Positions 24,781 to 62,154 of a stretch of DNA of 64,000 nucleotides are shown in pieces. A program made the position numbers and the translations under genes. The stretch comes from Hemileia vastatrix (Eukaryota > Basidiomycota > Pucciniomycetes > Pucciniales > Zaghouaniaceae). Location: positions 9,092,656 to 9,156,655 of the forward strand of contig JASXTE010000014.1 of the NCBI GenBank assembly GCA_030280995.1. Reading direction: 5' to 3'. Position 1 is the first letter of the stretch. Every line of letters starts with the position of its first letter. The notes under the pieces are model-generated. The model was not told where the DNA came from. It did no database searches and saw nothing but the letters and a program-made list of their open reading frames with translations.

Positions 24781-24789
24781 GAAAATTCG

Positions 24790-35964: not shown

Positions 35965-35969
35965 GGATG
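35965..35969. repeat. Target-site duplication of E4 (right)
   Basis: GGATG, identical to 27114-27118. Removing E4 and one copy restores a CTCCCAGCCAG...GGATGGGAGG palindrome. Confidence 0.9.
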
Positions 35970-37522: not shown

Positions 37523-37527
37523 CATAG

Positions 37528-38334
37528 TGTCAAGGTGCACTTTTGGTCTAGAAGATTTGGTATGAAGTTTTACAAGGATTTTAAAGGTATAAATGGTCTC
37601 TCAAAAAAATTTGTACGTATTTATTAATTCAAGGATGATTATTTTTACTTAATTAAAAGAGGTAGGATTAAAATATTGATATAATTTATAAATTAGAATT
37701 ATGTTATTGGAAATACTAATGATATAGAATATAAGAATAAGTTTGATTGGTTATTGTTGTAATAAAATGTTGTAGTAAAGGAATGATGAAAAGACAACAA
37801 AAAGAGAGGCCTTATATAGGAAAAGGAGAGACAAAGCACGGAAATCAAATTCTAAAAACAGTAGTATGAGAGAGAGAAAAGAATATTCCAGAAGGAGTAT
37901 TTTCAAATAATAAAGTTATTCTAAAAAGAAGGCGTCAAAAAGATGTATTTACAGAGTATGTCAGAAATACATCAATTTATTTAATATTTACTGTAGAAGT
38001 CAATTCTAAATAAGAAATTTGAAATTTTTGTATATATTTAATATTATTTGAATATTAAAATCTTATTCTATCTTAATATCTATTTTTTAATATAAATTTT
38101 TATTTTTTCCAACCTGTCAAATGAGCACGGTGTTAGAGAAAAATATAAGGGACAATTTTATATTTTTAATTTTAATTATTTATTTAATTTTATCATTCTG
38201 TAATTAGTTAATTTATTATAACTAATTTTAATGTAACTAAATTATAATTAAATAATAATTAAAATGATAAGGTGCGGCTTCATCCAGTTAATAATTAATT
38301 ATTTCACTGGGTAATTCTAGTAGCCTGGCTGACA
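37528..38334 (-). repeat. 3' LTR of E5
   Basis: Plus strand TGTCAAGG...GGCTGACA. The polypurine tract lies directly to the right on the minus strand. A TATATAGG motif is at about 37814. Confidence 0.9.
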
Positions 38335-41300: not shown

Positions 41301-43692
41301 CAAGACAATGAAAGTTTCATTTCCTCTTTAACTAATCCCAGTTCATGTGACCCATGAGCAAAGGCCATAGGAAAAGATTTTATTAAGTTAATGATGGAAT
41401 CTTTATCCTCACCAGAAAGTTGTTCTCCAAAAGAAGCATTGTCAATTTCAGACTTAAGGGCATGAATTTCCTTTGTAGATCTTCCTTTATATTGAGCCAC
41501 AGAATTACATGTGTCCAATTCTGGTTTTAATAATTTTTTAGGGGAGGAAATCTTAAATTTTCTCTTCCCATTCATCCCCATTTTGAAACATTGGTTTGAA
41601 GGATCCAATTTTATGCCATACTTGGTTAAAATTTCATTCCCTACAATAAACCAATTGCTCAAGTTATCATTTTTCATGACAACAAAATCACAAATAGCTC
41701 TTACAAAACCATGGTTAAATTTAAAAAACACTTTGGCTTTGTATTTACCAATGGGGAACAAAACAGAGCCATACCCTCTCCAATTTTCAGAAATGATAGG
41801 CATCAGTTTAGATTTATAGTCTTGATCTACTGAAACAAGTGCTCTTTCAGATACTACACTTCCTCCAGCTCCAGAATCCAGAACAACTTCAATGCTGGTT
41901 CCATTGATCAAGACTGGTGCCTGAAGAGGGGCAATAACAATTGAGTTATCCTCAATGTTCTTTATGATCTCAGCATCCTCAACTGTAGATAAAGCATTAT
42001 TATCAATATCAATAGTATTTAAATAATGAATATCCTCTTCCAGCATCAAGATTTCTTGTTGAGATTCATATGAAATATTGCTGGCACAATCACTTGATGT
42101 ATCATCCAGTGCCACTGTGTCATCAGCATGCTCCTCTGTTTGTTCCACAAGATTTATCTTCTTGTCACAAACATGGCCTTTCTGCCAAGGCTTGTTGCAC
42201 TTGAAGCAAGTGTTTGTTGCATACTTCTTTGGTGCAACAGGGGCAGAAGGTTTACCAACCTTTTCCAGAGGTTTTTGTTGGTAAGTGGAGGGTTTCTCCA
42301 AAGGGGTCCTAGGAATGAATCTTCTTGCATCATACTTATTGTTTAGAAGTATCTCATTGCAAGTATTAATGAAAGAAGAGGGTTCTTTGGAGAACTCAGT
42401 CCTAGCCACAATCAAGTCTCTCAGAGACATTGGTAATTTATAGAGGATCCTGTCCTTCCATAAATCAAACTCCATATTTGGGTCCATTGCCCTTATGATT
42501 TTTACAAGTTTCATTAAAAACTCAATAGGTTTATCAGTAGAAGAGCTATATCTAGTTTCCTCATACTGCCTTTGTTGAGCCATTCTGAACTTGGAGCCAC
42601 CAAATTGTGCTTTAATTAATTTCTTCCAATCCTCCCATGAGTAGTCATTCCCATCCAGGAGAACAGATTCATACCACATCAGGGCAACATTAGTGAACAA
42701 AGAAATTAATTTGGACACAATTTCCTCATCTGGGAGTTTGTAAGAATTTTTTAAATTATCAATTCTGCAAATAAATTGTTGCCAATCAGAGGAAGAATCA
42801 CCATCAAATGTTGGGTACTGGTCAAGTTTTGGCCAATTCTTTTGATTTGAAGGAGTCTCCTTAGTACTAGCTTGTTTCTGAGTAAGAAGCAGCTGTAATT
42901 TCTCTAATTGTGCTGAAATCTCATTGTTTAATCCTTCTGTTGCAGATCCTGGTGCATCATCAGTTTTTGATAGAAACTCAGTGTTATCAACAGGTATTTC
43001 TGGATCTATTTTTATTTTAGATGAACTAGCCACAGGTACTATTTGAGCATCCTGCACTATATGTTCCTTCACAGAAATGTCAGAATATTTTTGGTCATTT
43101 AAAAATGAGTTCAATTTTTTTTCAATGGTTGTTAGTCTTGTTTTCATTCTTGGAAGACTAGATAAACTCTCATTGATAGTTGCAAAAGATAATTGATTTT
43201 TATGTTGAAAAGATGACAAATGGTCACTCAATCTTTTCAGATTTATCTTATCTATCTCTACCTCCTGGAAACAGGCGGATACAGTATCTTTTAGTTTAGA
43301 CAATTCATTTTTTATATTTTGCCATAAAGCAAATTTCTTTTCATGGGTTGCTTTGTAATGAGACAATTCATCAGAGACTCTCTGTGCTTCACTTTTTAAT
43401 TCTTAATAACCCTGATCAGTTAACAAACTATTATATCTCTGATTCAATTGCATATTGTTCATTATATGATTTTTTTTGGCAATAATATCTCTCAAGTGCT
43501 CATCATTAATTCTTGCTACATCTGGAGTGTTTCTCAATAAGGAAACTGAGTATTTTTCCAGACTCTCATAGAACTCAGGGTCAATTGTTTCATCAATCAC
43601 GGCCATATCAGGATTAATCATTGATGTAGCAATTAAAAGTAATGGATTAGATACATGAGATATCTGTCTACTATTCCAAGCCTCTATAGGTA

Positions 43693-44274
43693 TCAAAGTT
43701 TCATTCTCCCTTCCAGATTTACCTGAAGGAACAGAGTCAGCCACAAGAAAAGGCACTTGAGAATCAATAGAGGGACGTACCAGGGTTTGCTGGGTATCAC
43801 CATATTGGGCTTCCTTCTTCTTTTGCCTCCTTGATAAGGGTGAGGAGGAGTGGGGTTGACCTGGGTGGGCCTTGATGGACCTACCTGAGGTAACTGATGC
43901 TGGTTTTGAGCCAAGTAGTCCCACTGAGTGTTGAGCCAGTCCCACTGCCACTTGGACACTTCCACCTTCTCTTGGGACGGGGGAGCCAATTGTTGTTGAT
44001 CCCTGGGAGGAAGAGGTTTCTTCTTCTCTTGGAGAAAAGTATCTGTTTTTCTCACCTTTTCTTCCAAGGCATCTACCCTTACCTTTAGTCTCAAGCTTTC
44101 TGTCCTTAACTCCTTTATGTGAGGGACAGATTCTTTACCTGCTGAGACAACGGCATCTTTTTTATCCTGAAGCCTTTTGGAAGCTCTTCTGGTGGGTTTA
44201 TCATGGGCTTCTGATCCTGAGTTGTGTCCACTAGGATTTCTACTTCTTACATTTCTACATCCTGTTTGGGGCAA
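43693..44274 (-). pseudogene. ORF A of E5 (alternative frame)
   Basis: After a one-base loss near 44125 the open frame passes through HIKELRTESLRLKVRVDALE, LPPRDQQQLAPPSQEKVEV, KWQWDWLNTQWDYLAQ and HPYQGGKRRRK. The stop after PW is lost, as in E4, leaving a hydrophobic tail. The 58-nt intron is intact at 44262-44319. Confidence 0.45.
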
Positions 44275-44319
44275 GGATTTATTAGTTTGAGAAATTCTTC
44301 TTGTTAAAGGAGAACTTAC
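44262..44319 (-). other. Predicted 58-nt frame-changing intron in E5 gag
   Basis: Donor TTCT|GTAAGT, acceptor CCAAACAG|GATGTAG; same length and phase as in E4 and R2. Confidence 0.5.
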
Positions 44320-44479
44320 AGAAGTAGCTCATCATAATCAATTAAGTCTAGTTCTTCTTCACGTGCAGAAAAACCACTTTGGTCAGTCATTTTAAGATTT
44401 AACCGAAATGAAAAAAGAGACAAATTAATTAGTCTTTTATTTTTAATTTTTATTTAACAGAAATAAAATAAAAATAAAT

Positions 44480-45080
44480 AAATAAAAAAATTTTTTAGGA
44501 TAAAAATCAACTTAAATAAAATTAATTTATTAGTAAAAAAATTTAAAACCAGGATTATAATATAATCAACTGTAGAAATAAATTAAAATTTTTATTAATA
44601 ATTATTTATTTTCAGGATTTAAATCAACTAATTTATTACCAAGACTTATTGTCAACTGAAGTAATCAAATATGAAACTTTATTAATTTAACAAAATTTTA
44701 TTAAACTGATATCTTAACTACCAGGACTTAATGTCAACTGAAGTAATTAAATATAAATTTTTTATTTTAAAATTTTATTAAACTGATCACTTAACTACCA
44801 GGACTTAATGTCAACTGAAGTAATTAAATATGAGTTTTATTAATTAAAAAAAATTTGTTGAACTACCAGGACTCAAGGTCAACTGAAGTAATTAAATATT
44901 ATTTATTAATTAAAAAAAATATTATTGCAAGGACAATTTGTCAACTGGAACAATTAAAATTCAAATTAATCAGGACAATTGTCAACTGAAAAATGATAAT
45001 AATTAATATTAAAATATAATTATTTTATTACTTCTGGGACTAAGAACAGTTATTACTCTATTATGGTCAACCAGGAAAAA
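44480..45080 (-). repeat. Leader repeat cluster of E5
   Basis: The same TTGAC-N-TCCTG units as E4, seen on the plus strand as CAGGACTTAATGTCAACTG and variants (about 44640, 44715, 44800, 44868, 44938, 44968). The longer unit ACTAAGAACAG...GGTCAACCAGG is at about 45030-45075. Confidence 0.65.
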
Positions 45081-45255
45081 TAAAATAAAAATATAATAAT
45101 AAAATTAAATTCCAAATTACCAGACACCTCCCCCTGCAAAATGAGCAAATTAATGCCACTTACAGAGTGCTGAGTAAAAGGAAATACGTAGCAAATGAAG
45201 AGTGAAGAGTAACCCACTAATAGTAATAACAATAATTACCACAATATATACGACG

Positions 45256-45310
45256 TTTAGTCAGTATATGAACCTAAGTTTTGGAGTGCGGTTCGATTCC
45301 CGTTTGCAGA
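45256..45310 (+). other. tRNA T-arm-like segment in the E5 leader (antisense to the element)
   Basis: GGTTCGATTCC at 45290-45300 is a perfect B-box string followed by CGTTTGCAG. TTTAGTCAGTATATGA upstream weakly resembles a D-arm. Spacing is short for a tRNA and the T-stem does not pair well, so not called a gene. Confidence 0.35.
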
Positions 45311-45450
45311 AAAAACTTTTGTCACATGACCTATGACATTCGTCGTTTTCTCGCCTCTCTCGTCCTTTACAGGTACTTTGCACACCGATTGTCCCCTTGA
45401 TTACGCCTCAAGTAACGTTACGCTGTCAATATTTCGGAAAGGCCCCCAAT

Positions 45451-46256
45451 TGTCAAGGTACGCTTTTGGTCTAGAAGATTTGGTATGAAGTTTTACAAGG
45501 ATTTTAAAGGTATAAATGGTCTCTCAAAAAATTTGTACGTATTTATTAACTCAAGGATGATTATTTTTACTCAATTAAAAGAGGTAGGATTAAAATATTG
45601 ATATAATTTATAAATTAGAATTACGTTATTGGAAATACTAATGATATAGAATATAAGAATAAGTTTGATTGGTTATTGTTGTAATAAAATGTTGTAGTAA
45701 AGGAATGATGAAAAGACAACAAAAAGAGAGGCCTTATATAGGAAAAGGAGAGACAAAGCACGGCAATCAAATTCTAAAAACAGTAGTATGAGAGAGAGAA
45801 AAGAATATTCCAGAAGGAGTATTTTTAAATAATAAAGTTATTCTAAAAATAAGGCGTCAAAAAGATGTATTTACAGAGTATGTCAGAAATACATCAATTT
45901 ATTTAATATTTACTGTAGAAGTCAATTCTAAATAAGAAATTTGAATTTTTTGTATATATTTAATATTATTTGAATATTAAAATCTTATTCTATCTTAATA
46001 TCTATTTTTTAATATAAATTTTTATTTTTTCCAACCTGTCAAATGAGCACGGTGTTAGAGAAAAATATAAGGGACAATTTTATATTTTTAATTTTAATTA
46101 TTTATTTAACTTTATCATTCTGTAATTAGTTAATTTATTATAACTAATTTTAATGTAACTAAATTATAATTAAATAATAATTAAAATGATAAGGTGCGGC
46201 TTCATCCAGTTAATAATTAATTATTTCACTGGGTAAGTCTAGTAGCCTGGCTGACA
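45451..46256 (-). repeat. 5' LTR of E5
   Basis: Plus strand TGTCAAGGTACGC...GGCTGACA. Preceded on the plus strand by GGCCCCCAAT, i.e. ATTGGGGGCC as candidate primer-binding site on the element strand. A TATATAGG motif lies near 45735. Confidence 0.9.
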
Positions 46257-46261
46257 CATAG

Positions 46262-47160
46262 TATCATTAAAAAGCTAATTTTTGGTTACCATCCAAATTT
46301 TTTTTTGGTTTGTCTTTCTCTTTTTATTTTTTTCATTCAATAAAAATGATACTTATTTTTCTACAATAATCTATTCCTAAAAATTATAATAAACAGATTA
46401 GTTGTCCATTTATTGATCAATCAACTCCTACCAAAGGATTTTTTTTAAATTTCAAGTAAGAATATCTTTTTTTCAATATTTCATTTTAAAACTTTTTATT
46501 ATTCTCAATAATTATATATTAAATAATTAAATAAAATAAAATATCATAGTATCAACATGTGTATGTGATCAATTTATTTTTACATATCAATAATTTATTG
46601 TATTGGCCTCCTGTAATTCTATTAATGGTAGAGGTATAGTTGATTCTTGTTTAAGGAAACTATACCTTTCAACACTATAAATTATGGATATCTGGCAGTT
46701 TGATATATTATTGATATATGGAGAAAATTTAAATAAAGCATCAACAGATACTTATGTATTATTGCTGTATTTATCATAATAATTGGGCATTGGATTTAAG
46801 CTTCACATTTAATTGTTTATGTTTAGGGTATAGTTGAATCTCGTGTGCCAAATGCATGCAGCAGAATACTATACTTTTAAGCAATAAAATGAAGCTTTAA
46901 TTCGAAATATTTGATTAATATTTTAAATGCAGCTAATACTTATGTTTTCTACATGCATGTTGTATATGATTTTTTGTTCAATATTAAGAATATAATGATT
47001 ATTTTTGGAGGCCTTATTTTTAACCATGGCATTATTTTTCACTTTTTTTTATTTATTTTTGAATTAAATTAATTTCTTATTTAATACACTTCAAGATGCA
47101 GGCTTCACAAAGTTTTTTTATAAAGAAAAATCACCACTGAGGAAAAAAATAAAACAACAA
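46262..47160. other. Intergenic DNA with two related hairpins
   Basis: Inverted repeat AGGTATAGTT...AACTATACCT at 46632-46667, with a weaker relative GGGTATAGTTGAATC...ATACTATACT at about 46826-46874. No gene recognised. Confidence 0.4.
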
Positions 47161-47164
47161 GCAT

Positions 47165-48274
47165 GTGAAAAACATCGAAAATGCATTACTTATGGTTGAA
47201 AATTATGGTGTTGAGACAGATGGAAAGAGGGAAAAATATTTTTCTAGGAGTTTTGTAAAAAATTTAGTTAATCCAGAACGGTATTTGATTTCAAATTCTA
47301 GCTTTTATATTTTCCATCCGATCCACTCCTCAATTCCAAGTGTTATAGTGAAAACATTTTCTATTGAAGATCTCATTTGATTAAACATGCTTGAAGCAAC
47401 AATTCAGTGCATCAAAGACTTCTTGTATTGTGAACATCGAGTTTTGCAAAATAAAGCTCATAAAAATGGTGGTGGATTTCGTAATATGTTTGTTGGTGGT
47501 TGGTGTTTAGATAGGAAAAAGTCTCTATTAATTCGTAAGTATTATATAGTTTTATTTATGAATAGTTTTAATCTTTTATTATTTTAATTACTTTTTTAGG
47601 TAAATATGCTTCTAAGCCCTTAGATTTGGCAGAGTATGTTTGTTGCATGAAGCGAATAGAGTTATTCTTTAAATTTTTTTTATCAAAATATATCTAATGT
47701 TAAGTATCAAGAAGCAGTAAAACTCTTTCAAAAGCTTGGGATTCCTGGGTTTGGAGAAAATTTTAACAATGAAGAAATTGAACCATTTGCTGGCAATGTT
47801 ACTTGGACAACAGGCTCAAATGGAAACGGGTTTTCAAATAGTTCTCACTGTGACTCAGACTGTAGCGAGTATACATTTGGACTTTTCATACCTAAAGACA
47901 CTAAGAAAAATTCTCTTCATCAATCTTATGACTCAAATCAACCACGTCAAAAAGGCGAAGAGCTTCATTTTCCTGAAATAGCTTGCAAAGTAGACATGGA
48001 GGCCACTAATGGCATCACAGCAATTCTATGGCCAGCAAACCTTCTTAAACATTTCACTTCACGATGTTATGAAATTTGTGGATTCACTCGCCTTGGCTGT
48101 TCTATTCAAGTTAGTACAAGACTTTTCAATACATTTAAAAAACTCCAAGAGTTTGAAATATATATTTCTGAGTACTTAAATATAAATGAAGAGTTAGAAA
48201 GATGTAATTTTCTTATGATGAAACTTTCTAAGTACAATGAAAAGACTGATTTAACAAAAACAAAAGAAAGTTAG
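47165..48274 (+). pseudogene. TET/JBP-like 2OG-Fe(II) oxygenase, decayed
   Basis: A two-exon reading is supported: exon 47387-47534, a 65-nt GTAAGT...TTTTTTAG intron (47535-47599), then exon from 47600. One frameshift in a T-run near 47680 and earlier stops break the frame. The open frame 47680-48274 contains YQEAVKLFQKLGIPGF, WTTGSNGNGFSNSSHCDSDC with the Fe-binding H-x-D pattern (HCD), YTFGLFIP, HFPEIACKVDMEATNGITAI, a possible distal His in LLKHFTS, and TRLGCSIQVSTRLFN. This layout (H-x-D, strand, distal His, then TR-x-GCS-x-Q) is what I know from the fungal TET/JBP-like family, which oxidises methylated bases. Family assignment rests on memory of the motif pattern. Confidence 0.5.
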
Positions 48275-50640
48275 TGAATCACTATATATTTAATGCTACT
48301 AATGATATTGAAAAATTAAATACAGAAAATGATTCTGATATACATGTTAATAAAAAAAGTAAAAGACCAATAAGTAGTGATAGGTAAAAATGTGATTTTA
48401 TTGTACAGGTATAGTTTTAGTTTAGTGGTAGAATGATATATTTACACACATGTCTATAAAAACTTTTTAAGAAGCTGATGATTATTTATAATCTGGTGAA
48501 CAACCTAAAACAATAAAAGTATAAAAAAAAATGGATGTAAAAATTGAAAAAACATATTACAATAAAAAATTATCATTGCTACAAGTAAAATAAAATATAA
48601 TAAAATATAATATAAGAAACAAAATATAGCTTTGTAACTTGCTTAATTATTGCAAATGGAAACTAAAAATAAACAATATCTTACAAATCCTTCCTAAAAG
48701 ATCATATGCAACAATATAAATAGATCTGTACTATTAATATTGTTTTTAAAAATATTAAAAATTTGGTAATTTTTGAAATAAGTTTTTTCTTATTAATAAC
48801 TAAAGTAAAACCTTGTATTATTCTATTCTTATTTAAGTAAAAATAAAAAAAAATTAATGGACAATTAAATATTAATTTTTTTCATTGAGTCACTCATTAT
48901 TCATTTTCATATCTAACTAGAATTAATTTAGTGGCATTATTCAATTTTAAATTTACTGAAATTTGTACACTACTGTGACTTATGATTTTTTTTTGATAAA
49001 TTGAATATTTTTCATCACATAATTATATTTTAGTAAAGCATATAACTTTAAAAGTAGAAGTGAAATAATCAATAAAAGGAAATGAGATATCTTGATAATG
49101 AAGAATATATCAATCGATTTAGATCTCCAATAAAAATTAATTCTAATTTTTAAATTTACCTTGTAGAAGAGGAATATATAATTAATATGAATTTCAATTT
49201 CATTGTATATCTTGACTTAGCCTTCATCATCTATCTTTAATTAAGGTGCAGAATTCCAAAATCTGAATTATATGATGATATTTCTATATATCTAATTGAA
49301 TTTTTTTTTTGAATTCATAAAACCAAGTATGTAAAATAGAAACTACTACATCATTTTTAAGTGAATTTTATTATATTATAATAAAATATTAATAATTATA
49401 AAAGGGATTTTACTTTTGTCAGAGAGTGGACCTCAATATATTTTAAGATAAATATAACACAATCAAATTGAAGTTTATTTTAAAGTGTTTGAATATTTAT
49501 CCATTGAATTAATTTTAAGAGTTGTGGAAGAATATTTATTTTTTCCTGGAGTTGAATGAATCTTAAAAACCAAAAAAAATATTGTAGATACATTTTTATT
49601 GAACTTGATCTATTAAGGTAGATGTAAGTAGAATTTGATTCATATGATATTTTAGAAGAAAAATAACATTTCAATAACTTATTATTGACATTTAAGGATG
49701 ACCAAGAAGTATGGCAATCTAAAAAGGGTTTGTTTTAATATTTATAGAAATAATATTTTTAAATTCTTAATAAGGAGTACCCTAGTTGCTTTTTTTTTTT
49801 TTTTGCTTTCATAGAAAGAATTAAATATCTTTTTTACCAAATTATTGAACAAAATTTGATATCTATACATGAATCTGTAAGTGTAAAAAATAATCAATAT
49901 AAAATATGAATCAAAATACAGCAAGCTAAATTATAGATCATCGAAATGTAGAGTAAATATTGTTTTTCAAAACAATTGACACTGATAAAAAGATATTTTT
50001 TAAATTTAACTAGTTTTTCAAAGACACTTTAATATGATTTCATACAAATATGATGGCTTCTCATTATTTAAAAGTCTAGATATTATTTTATCATGGTAAA
50101 TATATATGTTACTATTATTAAATGAATTGAATATTATTTCCAGGAGTTTTTCATAGAGAATACTAAGTATAATTAAGATAAATATGCACCTAGAAATTAT
50201 AGAAATTAGATTAAGAAAAGTCTACTTAAGAAAAAGCTTTGATGAATTGTGAGCAAAAATTCATTACACTTAATATTTTTGACTTTTTAACATGCTGAAA
50301 AGAATTGATAGAAAACTGTTTCATTTTTTTGTAATAATTATCTTAAAATTTGCGACAAATGCTAAGATGTATTGCCATCTTAAAGAAATATATAGTGTTA
50401 TGAGAAAAATGACTTATAATGTATTCTTAATTTTTCTTCAAATTTTTGATCCATCATGATTTTGAGTTATGATTATTGCAATAATATTTACTGAATAGCA
50501 AAAAGGTGTAAGAAATTTATACAATAATATTTATTGATAGTTTAAGCATCTTTATTCAGATTCAGTAATAAATCTCACATAAATAAATAATTTGAGTTAC
50601 ACAAAAAAATGTAGCAATAGGATAAAGTATATATTTACAT
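48275..50640. other. Long AT-rich stretch without recognisable gene
   Basis: Only short fortuitous open frames and homopolymer runs seen. A D-arm-like string at about 48411-48440 lacks the rest of a tRNA. Confidence 0.35.
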
Positions 50641-50658
50641 GAAGTAGGATTATGTATT

Positions 50659-53037
50659 AATTACGTCAACAATAGAGAAAAATGAAGAATTCGGCTTAAT
50701 AAGATTCCAATAATCAAGAAAATTAGCTGCCATTGCTTTAGCAATATGGCTCATGGTGGGAGTATTAAAATTAAGTGGCAAAGGCCCAGAATTATCTATT
50801 AAGGGTTTGATAATATTAAAGATATAAAAATTAAGGTTTTTCCAGATTTTTTCACCGCCCAGATTATTATTATCACAGTATTTTCTAAGGAGGACGAGTT
50901 GTGTTATGAGTTCTAAGCAGTCTGAAGCTGACACAAGCCGGTGGTCCTGTGAGGAAAGAAATAATCCACTAACACCATCAACCAAGTAAAAAGTAAATGA
51001 TTGATATTTATGGTGTGCATATTCTTGATTCATCTTCTGAATAGAATCATTATGAGACTCATCAAATTGCTGCATATCTGTTGTTTTCTTTTTATTCCTC
51101 AAACATTGTCATTTCTTGCTTTCAGCTTGAGTTACATTTGCAGCAGCCTCTCTAGATTTTAAAATAATTATTGAAATTATGACATCAATTATTATGTTTC
51201 TAAATTGGAATAGGGGAGTGATTGAAAAATTTGCAGCAATTAACTGTGATGTTGGGCTGTCAAATGTATTGGGAACTTTGCTTTTCAGATGTGTAAGGCG
51301 GGCTAGAATATGTAGGGCACGTTCAATAGGACAATCTGGATTGAAGTTGGATTCCTCAGCAGGAAGGGTAAACTCTTGAGGAGCAAGATAAAGAGATGAT
51401 GCAACGAGGGATGCCCAAAAAGAACGCTGGTGAACACTTGGGGTAACTAGTCTTGATAGGATGTGTATCATCGATGATTCAGGGTGATCAGTCTTCTTAA
51501 ACGTAGAATTATTATTTGAGTTTGGTTCTTCAGAGTTACAAAAATTTTCCAAATTTTCAAAGTTCAAATTATTGACCACCCAGATCTGCGAAGTGTCAAC
51601 ATTAAGAAAATCCAAAGCTAAAAAAATAACAAAACAATTAGTTATCATAAATTAAATTATCCAACTTCAAGTAAGTGATACATACAGAGTTCATTAATTT
51701 TTGTAAGAATTTTGTCATGAGCAGATTTCATCCATAGAAAATTGAATTTGTGCAAAATTTCTTGTGGCTTTTCAAGAGAAGCAGACAAATAGATTTCAAA
51801 TAACTGATTGATTTCTGGCCATGCCCTAAGTACCTTTTGACCATTGATTCTACCTTCAAAAAATCAATGAATTTCAGCTATTTGCTTCTGTAATTTTGAG
51901 TTTCCAATCATTGTTGGAGTTTAAGGAAGGGAGTTATTAGAAATTTTTATTGATGATGATAGAGACCGTAGGATTTGGGGAATTTCAATTTTAGATTTTA
52001 AAGATACGGAAACTATAAGCTGTTTCTTTGAACTTGAAGTATTTTTTTGTGGCTGGCTAGGTGGATCAATTTTTTCATTTGGTGTTCTCTCAACCTCATC
52101 AGCAGAAGTAGCTTCATCATCTTTTTGAGTTAGAGAAGCTTCATATTTTGAAACTTCATCTTCATTAGAGCAAGATTTGCTATTAGTTGACTCTTTGGAG
52201 TGATTGTCATTTTTAGAGCTGGATTAAAAGATAAGAAAAAGACAAGAAATAATAAATAAGAAAGTAAACAATTTGGAGATAGCTTTAAACACTAATATAA
52301 AATTGATTGCTATATTACTCATGAAAGAAATGACATACCCTTTCAACACATTTTGGCTAGTTTGTTTAGATTTTTGAGATGCTGAGTAAGAGGAATCCTT
52401 GGAAGGAGGAGTTTCAGTAGCACTGAAAAAACTAGAGCCCCTAGAAAGTCTCATTCTTTTTGAACGTCGAAAAATAGTCTTATCTCCCCCTCAAGATGTT
52501 GATGTATAGCCTTCAGCGTCAGGTATTTCATTATTGTCATCATCTTTGATGATAATGACATCATCAGGAGGAATGATCCCTTTTTCATAAGCTGAATTTG
52601 AATAAGTTTTAAAGAAAAAGTGTTGATAATTTATTGTTCTGAGTTTAAAGAATTTAATATAAAATAATTACTTACATTTTTCTAGGTCATCAATGTATTC
52701 AAGTACATTGTTGTAGGCATTCGAAATATAAGATGGCAAAGGCTTCTCGCTAAGAGTTGACAGTAGTTCTTCAGTTTTGCCTTTAGCAAACTCAAGTATC
52801 TTGCCATATTCAGTCCTTTCATTGGAAAGAGAAGGGGTGTTTGGAGACATGCCTAGAGGTAGTTGTTTCTTGAGTTTGAAGGATTCGAATCGAGAATGCT
52901 GATGAGATTTTGTCAAATAACTACTTGGTGTTAATATATCAAATATATTAATGGAAAAGAAAAGTTAGTCTAAGAAGATATAAGAGATAAAGCAATAGAT
53001 CTTACATAAAGGAGGTGTCTGTTTATCACGAGGCATT
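50659..53037 (-). pseudogene. Unrecognised multi-exon locus X1, Ser/Lys-rich N-terminus, broken
   Basis: Begins near ATG 53037 (MPRDKQTPPL). Exonic segments are joined by plausible introns at 52592-52675 (GTAAGT...TTCAG, 84 nt), 52219-52338 (GTATGT...CCAG, 120 nt) and 51618-51685 (GTATGT...TTTAG, 68 nt). The N-terminal half is charged and Ser-rich with basic clusters (RRSKRMR), as in nuclear proteins. The C-terminal half is mixed helical (HILSRLVTPSVHQRSFWASL, LYLAPQEFTLPAEES, YCDNNNLGG). At least two in-frame stops (TGA near 52492, TAA near 51919) and a break near 51105 indicate decay. I do not recognise the family. It may be an accessory gene of the neighbouring DNA transposon or a host gene. 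Confidence 0.45.
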
Positions 53038-54335
53038 TTAATGACTTATTACTTGAAAAAAATGAAAAATTCTTATATCAAGGTAATAAAGAGATAAAAA
53101 ATATATATTGCTATTTGTATTTTCAAGCTTTACTAACACAGATAAATGTGATAACCAAAATATAATAGTAGTAAAATTGAGAGAAATAAACGAATTGAGA
53201 AATGTGGTACTAAACAAGAGGGTTTATATATTACCAGAAGCAGGTTTTTGATAGGGGTTCTTTTACAATGGCATCAAGCTAGCGAGCATATTGTTAAATA
53301 GTCAGATGATAATAATGGGGTTAATAGTAAAAGGGAAGTAACTAGACATAAACATTGGGGGCTTAAAAGGATGACAAACAAAGAAAATTTCCAATTTACA
53401 ATTTGATAATCGCAAAGGGTAAATAGTTGAGAATATAAGTTAAACTAATTTAAATATTTAAATTAATTTGTAAATATCAACATCATGCAATATGACAAAG
53501 GGATCTATTATTGGAAATTTCAGCATCTTTATGTGTTATAAAAAATAGGGGACAAAAACAAAGGAAAAAGATAATTTAAAAAAAGGGGATAAAAAAAGAT
53601 AACACTAAATAGTATTATATAAAATTATTAAAAAAAATTAATTTATTCTATGATAGGAGCTCGTTTGGGCTGCGCTGACACCCCGTGGCACAAACCTAGT
53701 CTAAACTTAGTTAAAGTTAAATTGATATAATAAATCAGAAATAGAAACACTTAAGAATCTTAGCATATGAATAAAGTATAAAATTATTTGAAATTATTGC
53801 CATATAAAATCCAATAACAAACTACCAAAGTCACAAATTTTTTAAAATATTTTACAGATTTGTACAAGGTTACGTACTGTAAACATCATTCAATAGTAAT
53901 TGATGAACACCTTCCACTGAGATAACTAAGTTGAAAAAGAAAATAGATAATGGATATATGTTTCTAACTTGAGCTATTATTGAATAGGAACGGTCAAAAA
54001 AAATATAGCAGGATTAATCAGGGTATTTTTTACATTGATGTAAAGCTTGGTTGATAAAATAGTAAAAACCTTTAAATCAGGAGTAAAAAAAAATCAAATC
54101 AAAGAGGAATATTAGAAATAGGTGTTATAAAAATTACAACCAATATTTTAGAAATATTGAGGGAAATAAATTACTGGTAATCGCAAAAAATATTGTACTC
54201 TTTTACCTTAAAATGGAAATATCAACTACTCATAATATACTCAAAACAACTACCAATAGCTAAAGGTTTCCCTCTTTACCAAAAGACCATGGTAAGGAAT
54301 ATGTAGACAATTAAATCCATCAAACTGTTTTGAGT
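53038..54335. other. Intergenic DNA left of palindrome array II
   Basis: No gene recognised. The array starts abruptly at 54336. Confidence 0.3.
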
Positions 54336-56423
54336 AAAGTGTCCAGCACAAGTTCGGCCGAACTTGTGCTGGACACTTTTATGAGGAAAACCTCACGTCT
54401 CTTAAAAAAAAATACACCTTACCAACTTCAAATTATAAAAGTGTCCAGCATAAGTTCTGCCAAACTTGTGCTAGACACTTTGGCCAAGACCAGTGACTAA
54501 AAATTGCAAGGAAAACCAAAAATAAATAGGCTATAAAAGGAAGTTAATTGATGGCATCAAATTTTTTTTTGGTAAAAGTGTCCAGCACAAGTTCAGCCAA
54601 ACTTGTGCTGGACACTTTTATGAGGAACACCTCACTTCTCTTAAAAAAACATGCACCTTACCAAATTCAAATTGGAAAAGTGTCCAGCACAAGTTTGGCC
54701 GAACTTATGCTGGACACTTTGGCCAAGACCAGTGACTAAAAATTGCAAGGAAAACCAAAAATCAATAGGCTATAAAAGGAAGTTAATTGATGGCATCAAT
54801 ATTTCTTTTGGTAAAAGTGTCCGGCACAAGTTCGGCGGAACTTATGCTGGACACTTTTCCAATTTTAAGTTGGTGAGGTGTATGTTTTTTTGAGAGAAGT
54901 GAGGTGTTCCTCATAAAAGTGTCCAGCACAAGTTTGGCCGAACTTTTGATGGACACTTTTACCAAAAAAAAAAATAGATTCCATTAAATATGTTCATGTT
55001 ATAGCCTAATTATTTTTAATTTCCTTGAAGTAATAAGTTACTGTCCATGACCAAATTGTCCAGCACAAGTTCGGCGGAACTTATGCTGGACACTTTTATA
55101 ATTTGAAGTTGGTAAGGTGCATTTTTTTAGGAGAAGTGAGGTTTTCCTTATAAAAGTGTCCAGCATAAGTTCGGCCAAACTTGTGCTGGACACTTTGGTC
55201 ATGGACAGTAACTTATTAATACAAGGAAATTAAAAAAAAATTAGGCTATAACATGAACATATTTGATGGCATCTATTTTTTTTTTGGTAAAAGTGTCCAG
55301 CACAAGTTTGGCCGAACTTGTGCTGGACACTTTTATGAGGAACACCTCACTTCTCTTAAAAAAAGTTACACCTCCCTAACTTCAAATTATAAAAGTGTCC
55401 AGCATAAGTTTGGCCGAACTTGTGCTGGACACTTTGGCCAAGAACAATGACTAAAAATTGCAAGGAAAACCAATAAAAATAGCCCATATAATGAAGATCA
55501 TTGATGCTATCTAATGTCTTTGGTAAAAGTGTCCAGCACAAGTTTGGCTGAACTTGTGCTGGACAAATTTATAAATAAAACCTCACTTCTCTTAAAAAAA
55601 CATGCACCTTACCAACTTTAAATTATAAAAGTGTCTGGCATAAGTTCGGCCAAAATTGTGCTGGACACTTTGGTCATGGACAGTAACTTATTACTTCAAA
55701 GAAATTAAAAAAAATTGGGCTATAACATGAACATATTTGATAGCATCATTTTTTTTTTTTTTGGTAAAAGTGTCCATCACAAGTTTGGCAGAACTTGTGC
55801 TGGACACTTTTATGAGGAACACCTCACTTCTCTTAAAAAAACATACACCTCACCAACTTCAAATTGGAAAAGAGTCCAGCATAATTTCGGCCAAACTTGT
55901 GCTGGACACTTTTACCAAAAAAAATATTGATGCCATCAATTAACTTCCTTTTATAGCCTATTGATTTTTGGTTTTCCTTGCAATTTTTAGTCACTGGTCT
56001 TGGCCAAAGTGTCCAGCATAAGTTCGGCCGAACTTGTGCTGGACACTTTGGTCATGGACAGCAACTTATTACTTCAAGGAAATTAAAAAAATTTAGGCTA
56101 TAAAATGAACATATTTGATGGCATCTATTTTTTTTTTTGGTAAAAGTGTCCATCACAAGTTTTGCCAAACTTGTGCTGGACACTTTTATGAGGAAGACCT
56201 CACTTCTCTTAAAAAAACATACACCTTACCCACTTCAAATTGGAAAAGTGTCCAGCATAAGTTTGTCCAAGCTTGTGCTGGACACTTTTACCAAAAAAAA
56301 ATTTGATTCCATCAATTAACTTCATTTTATAGCCTATTGATTTTTGGTTTTCCTTGTAATTTTTAGTAACTGGTCTTGGCCAAAGTGTCCAGCACAAGTT
56401 TGGCCGAACTTTTACTGGACACA
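54336..56423. repeat. Palindrome array II: 18 copies of a 44-nt palindrome with spacers in both orientations
   Basis: Unit starts: 54336, 54438, 54575, 54677, 54814, 54916, 55053, 55153, 55290, 55392, 55526, 55628, 55767, 55869, 56006, 56143, 56245, 56392 (last one cut short). The consensus left arm is AAAGTGTCCAGCACAAGTTC, then GG|CC, then the exact complement; the first copy is a perfect dyad without a loop. Steps alternate between about 102 and about 137 nt because spacers alternate short (A, 58 nt: TGAGGAAAACCTCACTTCTC...) and long (B: GGCCAAGACCAGTGAC...; C: GGTCATGGACAGTAAC...). Order and orientation: A+ B+ A+ B+ A- C- A- C+ A+ B+ A+ C+ A+ B- C+ A+ B-. Peptides predicted across it are repeat artefacts. 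Confidence 0.93.
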
Positions 56424-57150
56424 TAGCATAATACTTAAACTCTACTTATGTATGTTTATCAATTACATGTTATTAAATCCTCTTTTATTTTTTTAAGGCA
56501 TGAAAAACAAATATAAATTGATGATTTTTTGGTTTTTAATGATTAATAATTTTCAATTATTGTTGCAAAAAGTGAAGTTTAAAAAAAAAATTCTTAAGAT
56601 CCTTGTGTAAACAATTTTCCATTGTTTGAATGCTTTAATTTTTTGCATATATTTTGTTTATTAACTATGGTAATGGATTTTTGAGTGCCTTTAATGATCT
56701 TTCTTTTTTGGTGAGGGATGGTGTTCACTTTCATTTTTTTTTTCACATGTGCATTTTTATACTAATCATTGGTGGCGTTTAGCCAATAAAAAAGCAATTA
56801 TAATTATTGAAAAACAGGTATTTTAAATTTAAATTTAGATTCTAATTCTATTCTTGTTTTAGGCTTTAATTTGATCATGTTTTAAGTATCTGAGAACAGA
56901 TTCAATTTAATTTATTTTAAGTTCATATATTGTGCATAAAAAATTTCACATTTATTTAATCAAAACGTTTATCATGTCTTAAAGTTTTACAAAAATATAT
57001 ATCTGTTTTTCTAGCCTCAATAATTTTAAAATTGTTAATTCTTTTGCTCTCGTTTATCTTATACATCAATTGGAATTTTTTATAAGAAAGAATAATAATG
57101 TTATATTTAAAAAATGATTACTATCACTCTATATACATGTTTACCAGTGG
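56424..57150. other. Intergenic DNA right of palindrome array II
   Basis: AT-rich, no gene or structured repeat recognised. Confidence 0.3.
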
Positions 57151-57160
57151 GGTAAAAAAT

Positions 57161-58830
57161 TTAAGGTGCTGCTGCTCGATCTAGTGCTTCATTAACTTTG
57201 GCGAAATCTATATCTTCTTGAACGTCAAGTAACTCCCTCTCATTAACCGACAAATTTGCTAAATATCCAGGTGAATAGCAGTTTTTTGGCAGAAATTTGG
57301 GCACATTCAAGATACCATCTGTTGAAGCTGTCTTTTTAGTTGAGCAATCATAAAGTTTCTTCATTGAAGCCTTTTCAACATTTGAATGGGCCGTTATTTT
57401 AGTCAAGTTGTCCATTTTATCTAAAATCTCATCGAGTTTTGGATTTCTCCATCCAGGAACTACTCGTTTAGGATGATTCTCTTCTGGATTGGGTGGGGCT
57501 TCTTCTAAATCAGACATGAGACTTGTATCATGAATAAGTGCTACAAAGCCTGGCTGATCAAAGCACTTTTTTCTTGCAATGTCGTAGCGGTTTTTTGAAA
57601 TCTAAAATCAAATCAAATTAGTAATAGACTTTCTTTAGTTATTATGCTTTGAATAAATACCTTTGTTTGATAACGCTTTATCTGTGCTCTTGATCTCTTT
57701 TCCTTTCTACTTGCCTCAATCACCTCACAGTTTTGACCAGCCACCTTTCAAATCTCCTTTCCATTGTTGACCACCCATTTCTCGACAATGATTGGTGTAA
57801 ACCTGAGTTTTTCTGAATCAATATTTTTCAATGTTGAGAGCCACTTAGTACAATGTTCTGGTACTACACTCCCCATTACTTGATTCCATAGTGAATCAGA
57901 AAAATTTTGACAGTTCCAATCAAAAGCGAGTCGACGAAATCCTTTCTCTTGAAGCTCTCGTTCCAAATGCTGTTTTACAGAGATTGGTACAGAAGCTCCT
58001 CCCTTTAGTCCTTGGGGCTCAGGTGTTGAAATAAAAGCTGGTAGATGAATTTTGAAACGTAAGAATATAGCAGTATTTGTTAAAATAAATTGACGATAAG
58101 CAGCTGAAGTTGCCTGTGGTGCGTTTTGAACCTGTTTTAATGCTGTTTCAATTGTCAATAGCTTGTACTCATGCCAATTTTTCCAATCTGTAAGTTCTTC
58201 ATTTGTTGGGCCTATAGGAAACTCAGATACATTAATGGGTCCACCAAAACAGAACTTCAAAAAGTGATAGATATTTCGGTTAATAGAATCTGAGCTCTTG
58301 GTACATCACACCTCTTAACTATTCTTTTAACCATATGCAAGTTTCGGTCATTTTGAAGTGACTCAGCATCAAGTATTCTGCGCTGATCAGTAGCTCGAAT
58401 TATAAGAGAGGGATTAACTGCAAATTTTTGAAAATAAAAATTGGTAAACCTATTTTAAAACATAAAAGCATGTTGAAAAAGTTTACTCACCAGGTCCACT
58501 GGTACTGGCGGCTGGGTTAGTAGAAGTGGATCCCCCACCGCTTCCAAGAAACTGATTCAACAACATACTAGCCCAATCATTACCTACACTTTCTGCTTCC
58601 TGCTGAAAATTACCAGGTGCGTATCGACCATCTGTATTTGTGATATTAGAAGAGCAATCAGTTGATCAATTTTGGGGATCTGATGAAGACTGAGGAGGAG
58701 GTTAGGGTTTACCTGGATTTTCACTAGGTCTTTCATGGGGAGCAGGACCCGATGGAGGCATTCTAGGATTTTGAGGGGGAGGATTATTTTGCACTCCAAC
58801 ATTACTTTCTAATGGAGGATCAACCTGCAT
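57161..58830 (-). pseudogene. Unrecognised multi-exon locus X2, probable DNA-transposon accessory gene
   Basis: A Pro/Ser/Gly-rich start (MQVDPPLESNVGVQ at 58830) leads to GNDWASMLLNQFLGSGGGS and a GTGAGT donor near 58493. The next exons give RRILDAESLQNDRNLHMVK, a 170-codon segment (58260-57748: YRQFILTNTAIFLRFKIHLP, LERELQEKGFRRLAFDWNCQ) and, after a 59-nt intron (57602-57660), RYDIARKKCFDQPGFVALIH, SLMSDLEEAPPNPEE and VVPGWRNPKLDEILDKMDN. Stops at about 58705 and 58675 and after GKEI (57748) show decay. An acidic SD-x-E-E followed by W-R-N/S resembles accessory proteins I associate with fungal CACTA-like transposons. That link is weak and the function is unknown. Confidence 0.4.
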
Positions 58831-59240
58831 GGCATCACCAGTATTAGAAATTCTGTGCTTTATAAAAAAAAATTATTAACTTTCAGAATATAGACAAGAT
58901 AATATTAAAGAGAAATTAGTTATACATTTTAATTGTGAGTTTAATGAATAAAATATTCAAGCGAAAAAATTAGTGGAAAACTCAGTTTTATTGGCTTGAA
59001 AAATATGGTCCTTAGATTTTTTAACCCTGGTTCTGAACTATTTATAATATTTTTCAAGTATAGGTAGACTTTGTATAGTACATTGAATTCCTTTTAGTAG
59101 GAATTACATTTACTATAAAATGCCACTCATTAATAGCAGGGTTTCTAAACAGTAATGAATGCCCTTGTTATTGTTTTCTTAAATATTTAGGCAACATCTC
59201 AAAAAGTTTTATTTATTAATCTTGCATCTAGCTGTTCAAA
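58831..59240. other. Spacer between X2 and transposase
   Basis: No coding sequence recognised. Confidence 0.3.
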
Positions 59241-60654
59241 AGATCTATTACAAACTTTCCAAATCCTCCAAATTCTTAACAATCCTAAAAAATTTCAACC
59301 ATATTAACAAAAATAAAATGTCCATGTTGTTTAATTTTTTACTTACTAGTTTCTGAAGTCCAACAGCAGTGATAACATCGTACTTTATTCCAAACATTCC
59401 CCTTTGGTGCTGTAAAATGGCGGCATGTCCAATAATTGAATCTTGATTTATCACAATTTGTGTCGCTTTTTCTACTCTTACTAAACGACAATGCACTTGT
59501 GGAAACACCTCATAGGGATCCTTTTTTGTATCTTCTGGTATAAGCTCTTTAAATGGACTAATGATTAGATAGACTTTTTAATTATTGTCCTTTGAGCTAA
59601 AAAGCTGATCAATATGCCCAAACTGACTATCTTTTCCAAAGTAGAATTCAATGGTAGAATTCCCAGGATTCTGGTCATGAGTCATATAACACTTTCCATG
59701 GACCAATATGCTTGCTATATTTTCAACTACCCTGTCTCCTACTTTCTCTGATGGTAACAAAGCCTGTTTAGATGTCTCTTTTCTTAAGCGTGCCCTTACC
59801 CATTTTGTAAATAATGCCTCAGTTAAATGGAAATGTCTTTTTTTGTATTGTACTCAATTTTTTTAATATTAGATCCATACTGAGAATCATCTTCAGCTTC
59901 ACCTAGTTCCAATACCTTAGACTTCCGATGCCAGTGCTTGAGCATGGTCCGTGGTATTTCTTCTATGTTAAATAAAAATAAATTAGCTCATTTACATTTT
60001 TAAGCACACAATTACCAAACTAAATACCTGGATGATGATTGTTTTGAATTTCCGATAACATACCATTAAATCTTTCAGCAGCCCAAGTAGCCATACCTAC
60101 AGGTGGACCAAAACGTTTAATCATTTCTGGAAAATGTTGAGTGAAATGAAGAATTGGCTTAAAGTTGATATTTTTCAAACCTTCTTCCAAGCAGTTACGA
60201 TACTCCAATAGCAGTTATTTTAATTCATCAACCTCATTGGCAGACACATTTTTTAAAGTCAAAAAGTTGGTAATTGAACTTAAAGTGATGAGTTATTTGA
60301 GAAGATAATATTCTCTAGGTTTGTGGTCTGATGTCACGGATGTCTCGGCTGGATTTAATTTTTCTACCCAAAGAGGGATAAGTGACAAAGGAAAGTAAAC
60401 AGTATAAAGTACATGCCACTCCGCAGCTCTGAGGGAACCTGACTTTTTAGATCCTACTTGTTTTGGCACTCGTGAAATCCAGGAAGGCTTTTTTGTTTTC
60501 TCTATCACATTCCACACTGCCTTTAGCTCAGTGGCTGATAATTGTGGATTCCTAGTTCTTTCACTTTCTTTCTCTTTGCCCTTCTTTTTATCTTCCTTAC
60601 TTCTAATAGTCTCAACTGATGAATTAGATCTTTCACTTTCGGATATACTGATAC
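59241..60654 (-). pseudogene. C-terminal part of a CACTA/Plavaka-like transposase, split by E6
   Basis: Read leftwards from 60650: an acidic/Ser-Lys-rich linker, ATELKAVWNVIEKTKKPSWI, AAEWHVLYTVYFPLSLIPLW, then (about 60200) NFKPILHFTQHFPEMIKRFG with FGPPVGMATWAAERFNGMLS. This His-rich segment followed by FGP...ERFNG matches the DUF4218-like region of fungal En/Spm (CACTA, Plavaka) transposases. Further on come TKWVRARLRKE, YMTHDQNPGNSTIEFYFGKD with FGHIDQLF (59760-59590) and VFPQVHCRLVRVEKATQIVI with GMFGIKYDVI (59510-59390). In-frame TAA codons at about 60293 and 60216 and breaks between exons mean it is dead. The N-terminal catalytic part would lie beyond E6, outside the window. Confidence 0.6.
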
Positions 60655-62154
60655 TGTCAGGCTAAGAACAAGTACAAGGACGTGAACTAGCTTGAATAGT
60701 CAGTTGTCTAGAAGATTTTAATGGTCCTATATGAATACTGTAGTTTTAATCCACTAAGTTGTAAAATATAATCAAATATAAAGGTCTCAGTAATATAATT
60801 CTCACTATTCTTATATATGGCTTACAATCTTTGTAGTTGGTAGAAAAATAGATTATTTAATTCAGATATTATTCAAAAGTCTTATAAAAGTACTAATTGA
60901 TATGTATTGTAATTTATTTGGTTATATTGGTTGAATTGTAATGATAAAGAATGAAGAAATACAACCCAAAAACCTCCTCCCTTTATACACACTGAGTTCC
61001 CCAATGATTCCCTTGATGTACCACCCAATACAAAGTTAATGACGCCTCTAAACAACTAATAGACATTCCCATCAACATTCCCAGTAACCCATGACATAAT
61101 TAGAAGAATAACAACCGCCAAAATCCTGTAATAATAAGGGAAATCCATCAAAATTAAAGAAAAAGACAAAAAGAGAGTATATGCGTATAAAACAATAATA
61201 TTAAAGACTAAAGGAGACTTTTTAAGGTTAATAATAGCTTAATAATAAGGGGGATTGACTGTAGAAACAATGGGGCTAATCCTGACATTATACTACGTGA
61301 AATTCCCATTCAAAAATAACCAAAATTGACTGAGAAACCACCCAAAAACTTAAAAAAGAGCGTGAGATGTGGGGTAACTACATGCAGTTCTTGGCAGGCT
61401 CTTGCACGGGTAAATCCTTGACTAAAATTAGGCGAATTTAAGCATGGTGATGAAATAAAGTGCCAAGAGTGAGGTTATTAATGAAATTAGTGCATATAAA
61501 CAAGGTCAATGCATTATTAATTAAGCTAGGACACTAAATAAGCGCCTGTCGCCTATTTTAGTGTTTTTCCCCACAGTCGGCGTAGAATGTGGGGTAATTA
61601 TAGTGTGAAAAAGCTAACTTTGCTAAAAATGAAGCTATTCACACGGGAAAAAAGCAGGCAGTATGTGGCCAGTACACAGAAGCCATTTCTGGCATAAAAA
61701 ACACCAAATTTGAAAAGTGTTATTTTTATGCATTTAAATAGCCAAATCAATAGTTCTAAATGAGCCCAATTGATCTGTCAAAGCGCAATTTTGATATTCT
61801 CAATTTTATAGCGCATATAGTCAACTTTTAAGTGAAATAAAGCACATTTCTTGTTTTTTGCATAAAACAATGAATATAACAGCTTTAAGTGTACTTAAAA
61901 ATTATGTAGCCTTATACTTAAGGTTCTTAAGATTACCCTAACATATTCCAACTTAATATTAAGTACATAAGACCTATAAAAGGTGGATATATGCGTGTAT
62001 ATAAGGTGTTATAATGGCATTTTTTGTGTATTATCATAATTTTACTTATGTATACTATTTGTGTACTCTTATTTATTATTCCCATGTATAGTTCATGTGT
62101 TTAACATAACTTATAATTACTTTTTACTCAGTCCTGGAGATATACAGGCTGACA
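60655..62154 (-). repeat. 3' LTR of E6 (family B, 1500 bp)
   Basis: Plus strand TGTCAGGCTAAG...TACAGGCTGACA. Full-length inverted match to the solo LTR at 3705-5203. A TATA-like TATAAAG is at 60987-60981 on the element strand. Confidence 0.88.

What the first reader, a model, noticed from the sequence alone, without database searches (positions are those of the whole stretch)
54336..56423. Palindrome array whose spacers have been inverted between palindromes
Eighteen copies of a loop-free 44-nt palindrome are separated by spacers that alternate short (A) and long (B or C). Spacers occur in both orientations (A+ B+ A+ B+ A- C- A- C+ A+ B+ A+ C+ A+ B- C+ A+ B-), and every change of orientation falls at a palindrome. 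This is the pattern expected if palindromes act as inversion breakpoints, like a shufflon-style array, or if cruciform/replication errors flip segments. The palindromes also come in two types (one arm CACAAG throughout, or one arm changed to CATAAG) that largely alternate, so the ancestral unit was probably a 239-bp dimer. I know no described element with this layout. Orientation calls were made by reading; the mechanism is inference.
Basis: partly seen in the sequence, partly recalled or inferred. Interest (0 to 1): 0.9.

Follow-up and report, generated by a model that had tools for sequence, protein, structure and literature searches.

The report
Palindrome array in a rust transposon
The flipped repeat array is real, but it looks like an inherited part of a high-copy fungal DNA transposon, shaped by an old mirror-image duplication, and its 44-letter palindrome recurs thousands of times in the genome and may be a conserved signal.

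Summary
The reading changes. The array lies inside a dispersed DNA transposon of a 747.6-Mb genome, which I infer to be Hemileia vastatrix. Its left flank has 439 candidate places; the 40 scored are at least 97% identical. Copies carry a tnp2/Plavaka-type transposase and a Tet-like dioxygenase. Five copies share one 26-spacer order; spacers 3-11 and 15-23 of it form a 1-kb inverted repeat, 98.5% identical. The window copy is that order minus two blocks. Spacers outside the mirror arms sit in the ancestral orientation in 95 of 100 unique assignments over 38 loci. So I read the flips as mainly an old inverted duplication, not an active shufflon. The palindrome core has 24,771 genome matches, control 0, many in a second array of 609-bp units; 53 of 54 neighbours sampled there share a strand. 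Neighbouring units are 84% alike (2 cases), but two palindromes differ at 2 of 44 bases, hinting at a constrained binding site. Function is inferred; transposon ends were not found.

The parts
54336..56425 (.). Array of 18 near-palindromes (44 bp) with 17 spacers: A (56-58 bp), B (90-93 bp), C (93-95 bp)
54380..54915 (.). Window spacers 1-5 (with their palindromes) = spacers 1-5 of the 26-spacer order
54960..56005 (.). Window spacers 6-14 = spacers 14-22 of the 26-spacer order (6-13 lost)
56050..56381 (.). Window spacers 15-17 = spacers 24-26 of the 26-spacer order (23 lost)
54680..55096 (+). Left arm of the longest inverted repeat found in the window's array (partner 56006-56422, 92%)
   Evidence: I1
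56006..56422 (-). Right arm of that inverted repeat
   Evidence: I1
46257..60655 (.). Transposon body around the array; 94-96% identical to two dispersed copies (L031/L032; L033/L034 from 49331 on)
36944..37528 (.). Further left piece of the same transposon, cut off from the body by a nested LTR retrotransposon
47660..48271 (+). Tet-like 2OG-Fe(II) oxygenase (PF20515, E 4e-20)
60293..60661 (-). Piece of the ORF next to the transposase (by eye the same as ORFs of L032 and L034); the PF02992 domain itself, seen in L034, lies further right and is cut off here by an LTR insertion at 60655
57161..58305 (-). Two transposon ORFs of unknown function right of the array; the related ORF L032:1619-2395 (-), matched by eye to window 57748-58305, had no homologue at E 0.001 in the protein search
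50650..52964 (-). Transposon ORFs of unknown function left of the array (two counterparts in L033 scanned, no Pfam family at E 0.001)
37528..46256 (-). Nested Ty3/gypsy LTR element (CATAG on both sides), not part of the array's transposon

Best explanation
The array is an inherited, largely frozen part of a high-copy TET-carrying DNA transposon of the CACTA/Plavaka kind in a rust fungus. Shown: it has a 26-spacer order present in dispersed copies; that order contains a mirror-image duplication of about 1 kb centred on one short spacer; copies can be written as that order with blocks lost or repeated, joined at palindromes. Inferred, for the flips: two palindromes flanking a 58-93-nt spacer are inverted repeats of each other with a short loop, so a replication fork can switch template there and copy backwards, giving an inverted duplication with the spacer as its centre. 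Inferred, for the losses and gains: recombination or slippage between palindromes, which are direct as well as inverted repeats of one another. Inferred, for function: the palindrome is a dyad binding site for a transposon-encoded protein, either a transposition accessory factor as proposed for CACTA subterminal repeats or an anti-silencing factor as with VANC repeats in Arabidopsis, kept by selection in at least two repeat families.
For: Dispersed transposon: the left flank has 439 candidate places, 40 of 40 scored at 97% or more; a left piece has 451 candidates and a right segment 558, 40 scored each. Transposase in L034: PF02992 9e-18 and PF18759 2.6e-6; dioxygenase in the window: PF20515 4e-20. 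The two best of 29 transposase relatives are Puccinia striiformis proteins, 41-42% identical. Same order in 5 full copies. Mirror: consensus arms of 1011 bp, 98.5% identical, against 61-76% for 5 shifted controls; by spacer type alone 85 of 20,000 shuffles reach a 9-pair mirror. Window = 1-5, 14-22, 24-26 of that order, reversed segments adding nothing. Spacers outside the mirror arms (1, 12, 13, 24, 25) are forward in 95 of 100 unique assignments. Of 18 block junctions that I picked from 15 loci, 9 have the same spacer in register on at least one side and 9 share only the palindrome. Loop length: the same palindrome 609 bp apart keeps one strand in 53 of 54 sampled neighbours. Constraint: the 566-bp rest of the 609-bp unit is 84% identical between neighbouring units (2 cases), while the two palindromes of L067 differ at 2 of 44 bases, one of them in the CpG. 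In the window's array type, palindromes diverge 2.0% at consensus level (sites 14, 20 and 21 left out, better of two orientations taken) against 2.8-8.9% for spacers.
Against: Orientation changes in the left half of the order (between 4 and 5, for example) are not explained by the big mirror and need further events. The innermost pair (12/14) is B against C in the main subfamily. Allowing reversed segments improved the fit in 14 of 38 arrays: 50.5 units in L026, 18.3 in L016, 14.2 in L012, 10.0 in L041 and 2.1-8.1 in ten others. 5 of 100 unique assignments outside the arms are reversed, all spacer-12-like, in L016 and L026, neighbouring stretches of one array. Flips between the mirror arms cannot be seen at all. 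By type alone the mirror is only moderately unlikely (85 of 20,000). The 609-bp arrays may simply be younger, and only 100 places on one contig were sampled, so the loop-length contrast is suggestive. The constraint argument rests on two palindromes and two unit pairs from different loci; palindromes may be alike through gene conversion. No binding protein was identified. The transposon's ends and target-site duplication were not found.
Confidence: 0.6

Rival explanations
1. Active inversion by homologous recombination: any two palindromes are inverted repeats, so spacers or blocks keep flipping in each copy, as in a shufflon without its own enzyme.
For: Every orientation change is at a palindrome. 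Reversed segments improve the fit of 14 of 38 arrays, most in L026 (50.5), L016 (18.3) and L012 (14.2). Flips between the mirror arms would go unseen.
Against: Order is shared by five copies 94-96% alike. 24 of 38 arrays gain nothing from reversed segments. Outside the arms 95 of 100 unique assignments are forward. The same palindrome in 609-bp arrays leaves strand uniform in 53 of 54 sampled neighbours.
Confidence: 0.15
2. Passenger satellite: the array has no function; palindromes persist only because they promote their own duplication.
For: Array length varies widely, from 7 palindromes (L044) to a stretch of 39 in L027. Losses and gains are common.
Against: The palindrome is better conserved than its surroundings in both array types, on limited data, and is shared by two units that are otherwise unrelated.
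Confidence: 0.25
3. The palindrome is itself a tiny mobile element (a loop-less MITE) that has inserted into several repeat families.
For: 24,771 core matches, in two unrelated unit types.
Against: About 10-14 bases on each side also look similar between the two unit types by eye, which points to descent of a longer segment. Empty sites and target duplications were not searched for.
Confidence: 0.1

Closest known systems
TET-carrying EnSpm/CACTA and Plavaka transposons of fungi (Kojima 2025, PMC12730594; abstract, section 3.1 and passages read)
   Same: tnp2/Plavaka-like transposase and a Tet-like dioxygenase in one dispersed unit of a rust fungus.
   Different: That main text has 'palindrom' once (not about an array), 'tandem repeat' and 'Hemileia' not at all; its supplements were not seen. 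The palindrome array is not described in what I read.
Subterminal repeats of plant CACTA elements, e.g. Tgmt* of soybean (PMC2613891; passages read)
   Same: Direct and inverted copies of a motif able to form stem-loops, proposed binding sites of a TNPA-like protein.
   Different: Here a 44-bp loop-less palindrome in an array of about 3 kb in the full 26-spacer order, with at least 8 kb of shared transposon sequence on the left (L031) and about 7.5 kb on the right (L034, its insertion left out); position relative to the ends unknown.
VANC-bound tandem repeats of VANDAL transposons in Arabidopsis (PMC5735166; passages read)
   Same: Dense repeated motif in non-coding parts of a transposon; unit number differs between copies.
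   Different: VANC21 motifs are 9 bp and in one orientation; no binding protein is known here.
Foldback/Galileo elements of Drosophila (PMC4168063, PMC3573991; search listing and start of abstract only)
   Same: Long inverted repeats made of internal repeats.
   Different: There the repeats are terminal; here the inverted repeat is internal.
Shufflons (recalled)
   Same: Segments in both orientations between short repeats.
   Different: No recombinase seen among 20 ORFs scanned; order largely inherited, not shuffled per copy.
[quoted passage not shown] PMC10766183, passages read)
   Same: Inverted duplicates whose junctions lie at short inverted repeats with a loop.
   Different: Shown in yeast; inferred here from anatomy alone.

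Membership tests
TET-carrying CACTA/EnSpm or Plavaka DNA transposon | DDE transposase of the tnp2/Plavaka kind | tested here: met
   L034:5744-6979 (-): PF02992 E 9e-18, PF18759 E 2.6e-6; rust homologues. Catalytic residues not checked; the domain itself is not in the window.
TET-carrying CACTA/EnSpm or Plavaka DNA transposon | TET/JBP-like dioxygenase in the same unit | tested here: met
   PF20515 E 4e-20 in the window and 5e-18 in L031, colinear with the array in the C531 copy. A protein-database search with it found nothing at E 0.001.
TET-carrying CACTA/EnSpm or Plavaka DNA transposon | Termini CAC..GTG with 3-bp TSD (EnSpm) or TGT..ACA / CATCA..TGATG (Plavaka A/B) | tested here: inconclusive
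   Ends not reached: other insertions or unshared sequence interrupt the copies read.
TET-carrying CACTA/EnSpm or Plavaka DNA transposon | High-copy dispersed unit | tested here: met
   439, 451 and 558 candidate places for three segments, 40 scored each.
Shufflon | Copies differ by inversions of segments | tested here: not met
   24 of 38 arrays gain nothing from reversed segments; the other 14 gain 2.1-50.5 units, explained for 6 by a shared subfamily feature and for 7 chiefly by mirror ambiguity, 1 unexplained. Outside the mirror arms 95 of 100 assignments are forward. Flips between the arms and single private inversions are not excluded.
Shufflon | Adjacent site-specific recombinase | tested here: inconclusive
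   None in the 20 ORFs scanned against Pfam; not all ORFs were scanned.
Foldback/Galileo type | Repetitive inverted arms at the element's termini | tested here: not met
   The array is flanked by shared transposon sequence on both sides.
VANC-type anti-silencing target | Motif bound by an element-encoded protein that lowers methylation | not testable with these tools
   No binding or methylation data at hand.

The most novel reading that the evidence does not exclude
One 44-bp palindrome serves as a shared recognition sequence for several transposon families of this rust: thousands of copies in two array designs form docking platforms that bring a transposon-encoded binding protein, and with it the element's TET-like dioxygenase, to keep the elements unmethylated or to assemble transposition complexes.
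Probability: 0.2. Interest if true: 0.8.

Novelty: new variant of a known kind. Interest (0 to 1): 0.55.

Why it matters
Fungal transposons with TET-like enzymes are thought to escape methylation, but how the enzyme would find its own element is unknown to me. An array of CpG-centred palindromes inside such a transposon, and the same palindrome in a second repeat family, gives a concrete candidate address. The two array types (58-93 bp against about 565 bp between palindromes) are also a natural comparison for how loop length governs inverted duplication.

Tried and rejected
Shufflon and ongoing inversion: tested by fitting 38 loci to the 26-spacer order with and without reversed segments and by the orientation of spacers outside the mirror arms; not needed in 24, not excluded in single copies. 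An apparent inverted centre in L005 turned out to be a simple loss of spacers 11-18 when spacers were assigned by sequence. The alternation of two palindrome types is real, but I could not reconstruct the full event history from it.

Gene conversion between the mirror arms within a copy: arms are 92.8-95.9% alike within five copies, about the same as between copies, so no clear sign of extra homogenisation.

Ends of the transposon: several attempts failed. A stretch about 6-10 kb right of one copy's array matched window 22.0-25.25 kb, which did not settle the matter. Protein searches with an unknown ORF and with the dioxygenase gave nothing.

Link of the 609-bp arrays to a transposase: by eye, one of the two tnp2 places listed on C2 below 18.4 Mb (C2:7163228) lies about 4 kb from such an array. 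One case only, so not used as evidence.

CpG decay: site 20 is T in 34% and site 21 A in 11% of folded arms. I take it as weak support for methylation at most, since the two rates differ, a non-CpG site (14) varies as much (30% T), and much of it may be inherited.

Full report
What is there. The window holds 18 near-palindromes of 44 bp between 54336 and 56425, separated by short (A) and long (B or C) spacers. B and C are themselves related (64-76%).

Where it is. The genome search places the window in a 747.6-Mb genome of 791 contigs. Contig C26 is 71,415,227 bp long, exactly the largest scaffold of the Hemileia vastatrix Race I assembly (PMC10652848, part 1 of 2 of the text read). That assembly's total is 747,980,110 bp in 794 scaffolds, close to but not the same as the 747,610,610 bp here. 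I infer that the organism is the coffee leaf rust fungus.

It is part of a transposon. The same array with the same flanks recurs across the genome; of 38 loci analysed, 37 show the left flank and 32 the right flank, some being cut short. For the left flank the first look gave 439 candidate places, of which the 40 scored match at 97% or more. A left piece gave 451 candidates and a right segment 558, 40 scored each. In two copies the match runs from window 46257 or 49331 to 60655 at 94-96%, one with an insertion on the way. In the window the unit is broken by a nested Ty3/gypsy element (37528-46256, CATAG on both sides) and by an LTR insertion at 60655. A copy (L034) carries a transposase with Pfam matches to tnp2 (PF02992) and Plavaka (PF18759), and the window itself has a Tet-like 2OG-Fe(II) oxygenase gene at 47660-48271. 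Among 29 relatives of the transposase the best named are proteins of Puccinia striiformis; Austropuccinia, Phakopsora, Mucor and others follow. Kojima (PMC12730594; abstract, section 3.1 and passages read) describes TET-carrying EnSpm families in rusts and TET-carrying Plavaka in mushrooms; the word Hemileia does not occur in that main text and I saw no array of this kind in what I read. I did not find the element's ends.

The order is inherited. Five copies (L006-L009, L021) have the identical order of 26 spacers. The window is that order without spacers 6-13 and 23. I fitted 38 loci (two of them, L016 and L026, neighbouring stretches of one long array; 11 reached by the left flank alone, the rest best matches to the window array) to the 26-spacer order. 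With forward pieces only, each can be written as kept, lost and repeated blocks, in 1 to 15 pieces. Allowing reversed pieces gains nothing in 24 of 38. It gains 2.1-8.1 units in 10, 10.0 in L041, 14.2 in L012, 18.3 in L016 and 50.5 in L026. Reading the paths by eye, 6 of these 14 (L016, L024, L026, L037, L043, L047) share a reversed piece like spacers 11-12 at positions 8-9, so this looks inherited by a subfamily. In 7 (L002, L010, L012, L018, L020, L025, L048) the reversed pieces are chiefly the mirror partners of the forward ones and cannot tell an inversion from the mirror. L041 is neither. Because of the mirror this test is blind to flips between the arms. Outside the arms, spacers 1, 12, 13, 24 and 25 could be uniquely assigned 100 times: 95 forward, 5 reversed (all spacer 12-like, in L016 and L026); the central spacer 13 is forward in 26 of 26.

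The order is a mirror. Spacers 3-11 and 15-23 of the order match each other in reverse, type by type, around spacer 13. Their consensus arms are 1011 bp long and 98.5% identical, while five shifted pairings give 61-76%; by type alone, 85 of 20,000 shuffles that keep the A/non-A alternation do as well. In the second subfamily the innermost pair (12/14) is mirrored too (strings of L024 and L043, by eye). An inverted duplication makes this; inversion alone does not. Each palindrome pair around one short spacer is an inverted repeat with a short loop, the kind of substrate described for template switching in yeast (PMC10766183, passages read). That this happened here is inference. Changes of orientation inside the left half need further, unresolved events.

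How copies change. Of 18 block junctions that I picked from 15 loci, 9 have the same spacer in register on at least one side and 9 share only the palindrome.

The palindrome is widespread. The 34-bp core has 24,771 matches with up to 3 mismatches, and the reversed control none. Among the 100 places listed many lie about 609 bp apart. One such unit (L067) shows the same palindrome (1 mismatch to consensus in each of two copies) and about 10-14 similar-looking bases on each side, the rest being unrelated to A, B or C. A signature of this unit has 9,756 + 10,430 matches, control 0. Among the first 100 places listed, all on one contig, 53 of 54 neighbours within 5 kb are on one strand. So the palindrome alone does not visibly scramble an array at this spacing; younger age of these arrays is the alternative.

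Constraint. The 566-bp remainder of the unit is 98% identical at the same array position in the copies scored (40 rows, the query itself 100%), but 84% between neighbouring units (2 cases), whereas the two palindromes of L067 differ at 2 of 44 positions, one in the CpG. In the window's array type the palindromes differ by 2.0% at consensus level, leaving out three variable sites and taking the better of two orientations, against 7.2%, 8.9% and 2.8% for A, B and C. In the window 17 of 18 CpGs of the array are in palindromes. This fits a dyad-symmetric binding site, on limited data. CACTA elements of plants have subterminal repeats in both orientations that are proposed TNPA sites (PMC2613891, passages), and Arabidopsis VANDAL elements carry dense motif arrays bound by the anti-silencing VANC proteins (PMC5735166, passages). 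By analogy the array may be a docking platform; I have no binding data.

Verdict. The layout is real and unusual, its home is a known kind of transposon, and its scrambled look is, in my reading, mostly a fossil mirror duplication. A paper search for Hemileia vastatrix with 'palindrom' found 7 papers and listed 6, none on repeats by title; that is one library and one search.

Noticed in passing
L067 (C2:7413000-7413680) and 20,186 signature places genome-wide: Second, more abundant array type: head-to-tail 609-bp units each holding the same palindrome, itself seemingly with fixed-order copies (98% at one position, 84% between neighbours, 2 cases).
   Followed up: partly
window 26238-27118 and 35962-36541; L052, L056, L062: Another repeat region (period about 460-475 bp, with inverted sub-repeats) at the left of the same transposon, split in the window by a gypsy element.
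   Followed up: partly
window 27118-27939 and 35140-35962: LTRs of a Ty3/gypsy element, 99.4% identical, so probably a recent insertion into the transposon.
   Followed up: no
L063:539-1737 (+): Right of the transposase, plus-strand ORFs that by eye resemble the ORFs at window 57161-58305 on the other strand; possible inverted gene duplication within the element.
   Followed up: no
palindrome sites 20 and 21, 795 palindromes: C to T at the CpG (34%) is three times as frequent as G to A (11%) on the folded arm; symmetric CpG methylation would predict equal rates.
   Followed up: no
L014, L019 (twice), L030, L047, L049: Recurring 32-nt form of spacer A, by eye a deletion between two ACACCTCAC repeats.
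   Followed up: partly
C26:65724112-65733494 (L016, L026, L027): Very long array region (about 7 kb); the L026 stretch shows repetition of an 8-spacer block.
   Followed up: partly
window 22012-25251 and C502:26043600-26047099 (L066, L065): A 93-94% identical repeat that lies left of the transposon in the window and about 6 kb right of the array in another copy; identity unknown.
   Followed up: no
G000: The 150 scored PF02992 matches look like two classes by extent (about 4-155 and 4-186), suggesting at least two tnp2 families; one of the first class lies about 4 kb from a 609-bp array.
   Followed up: no
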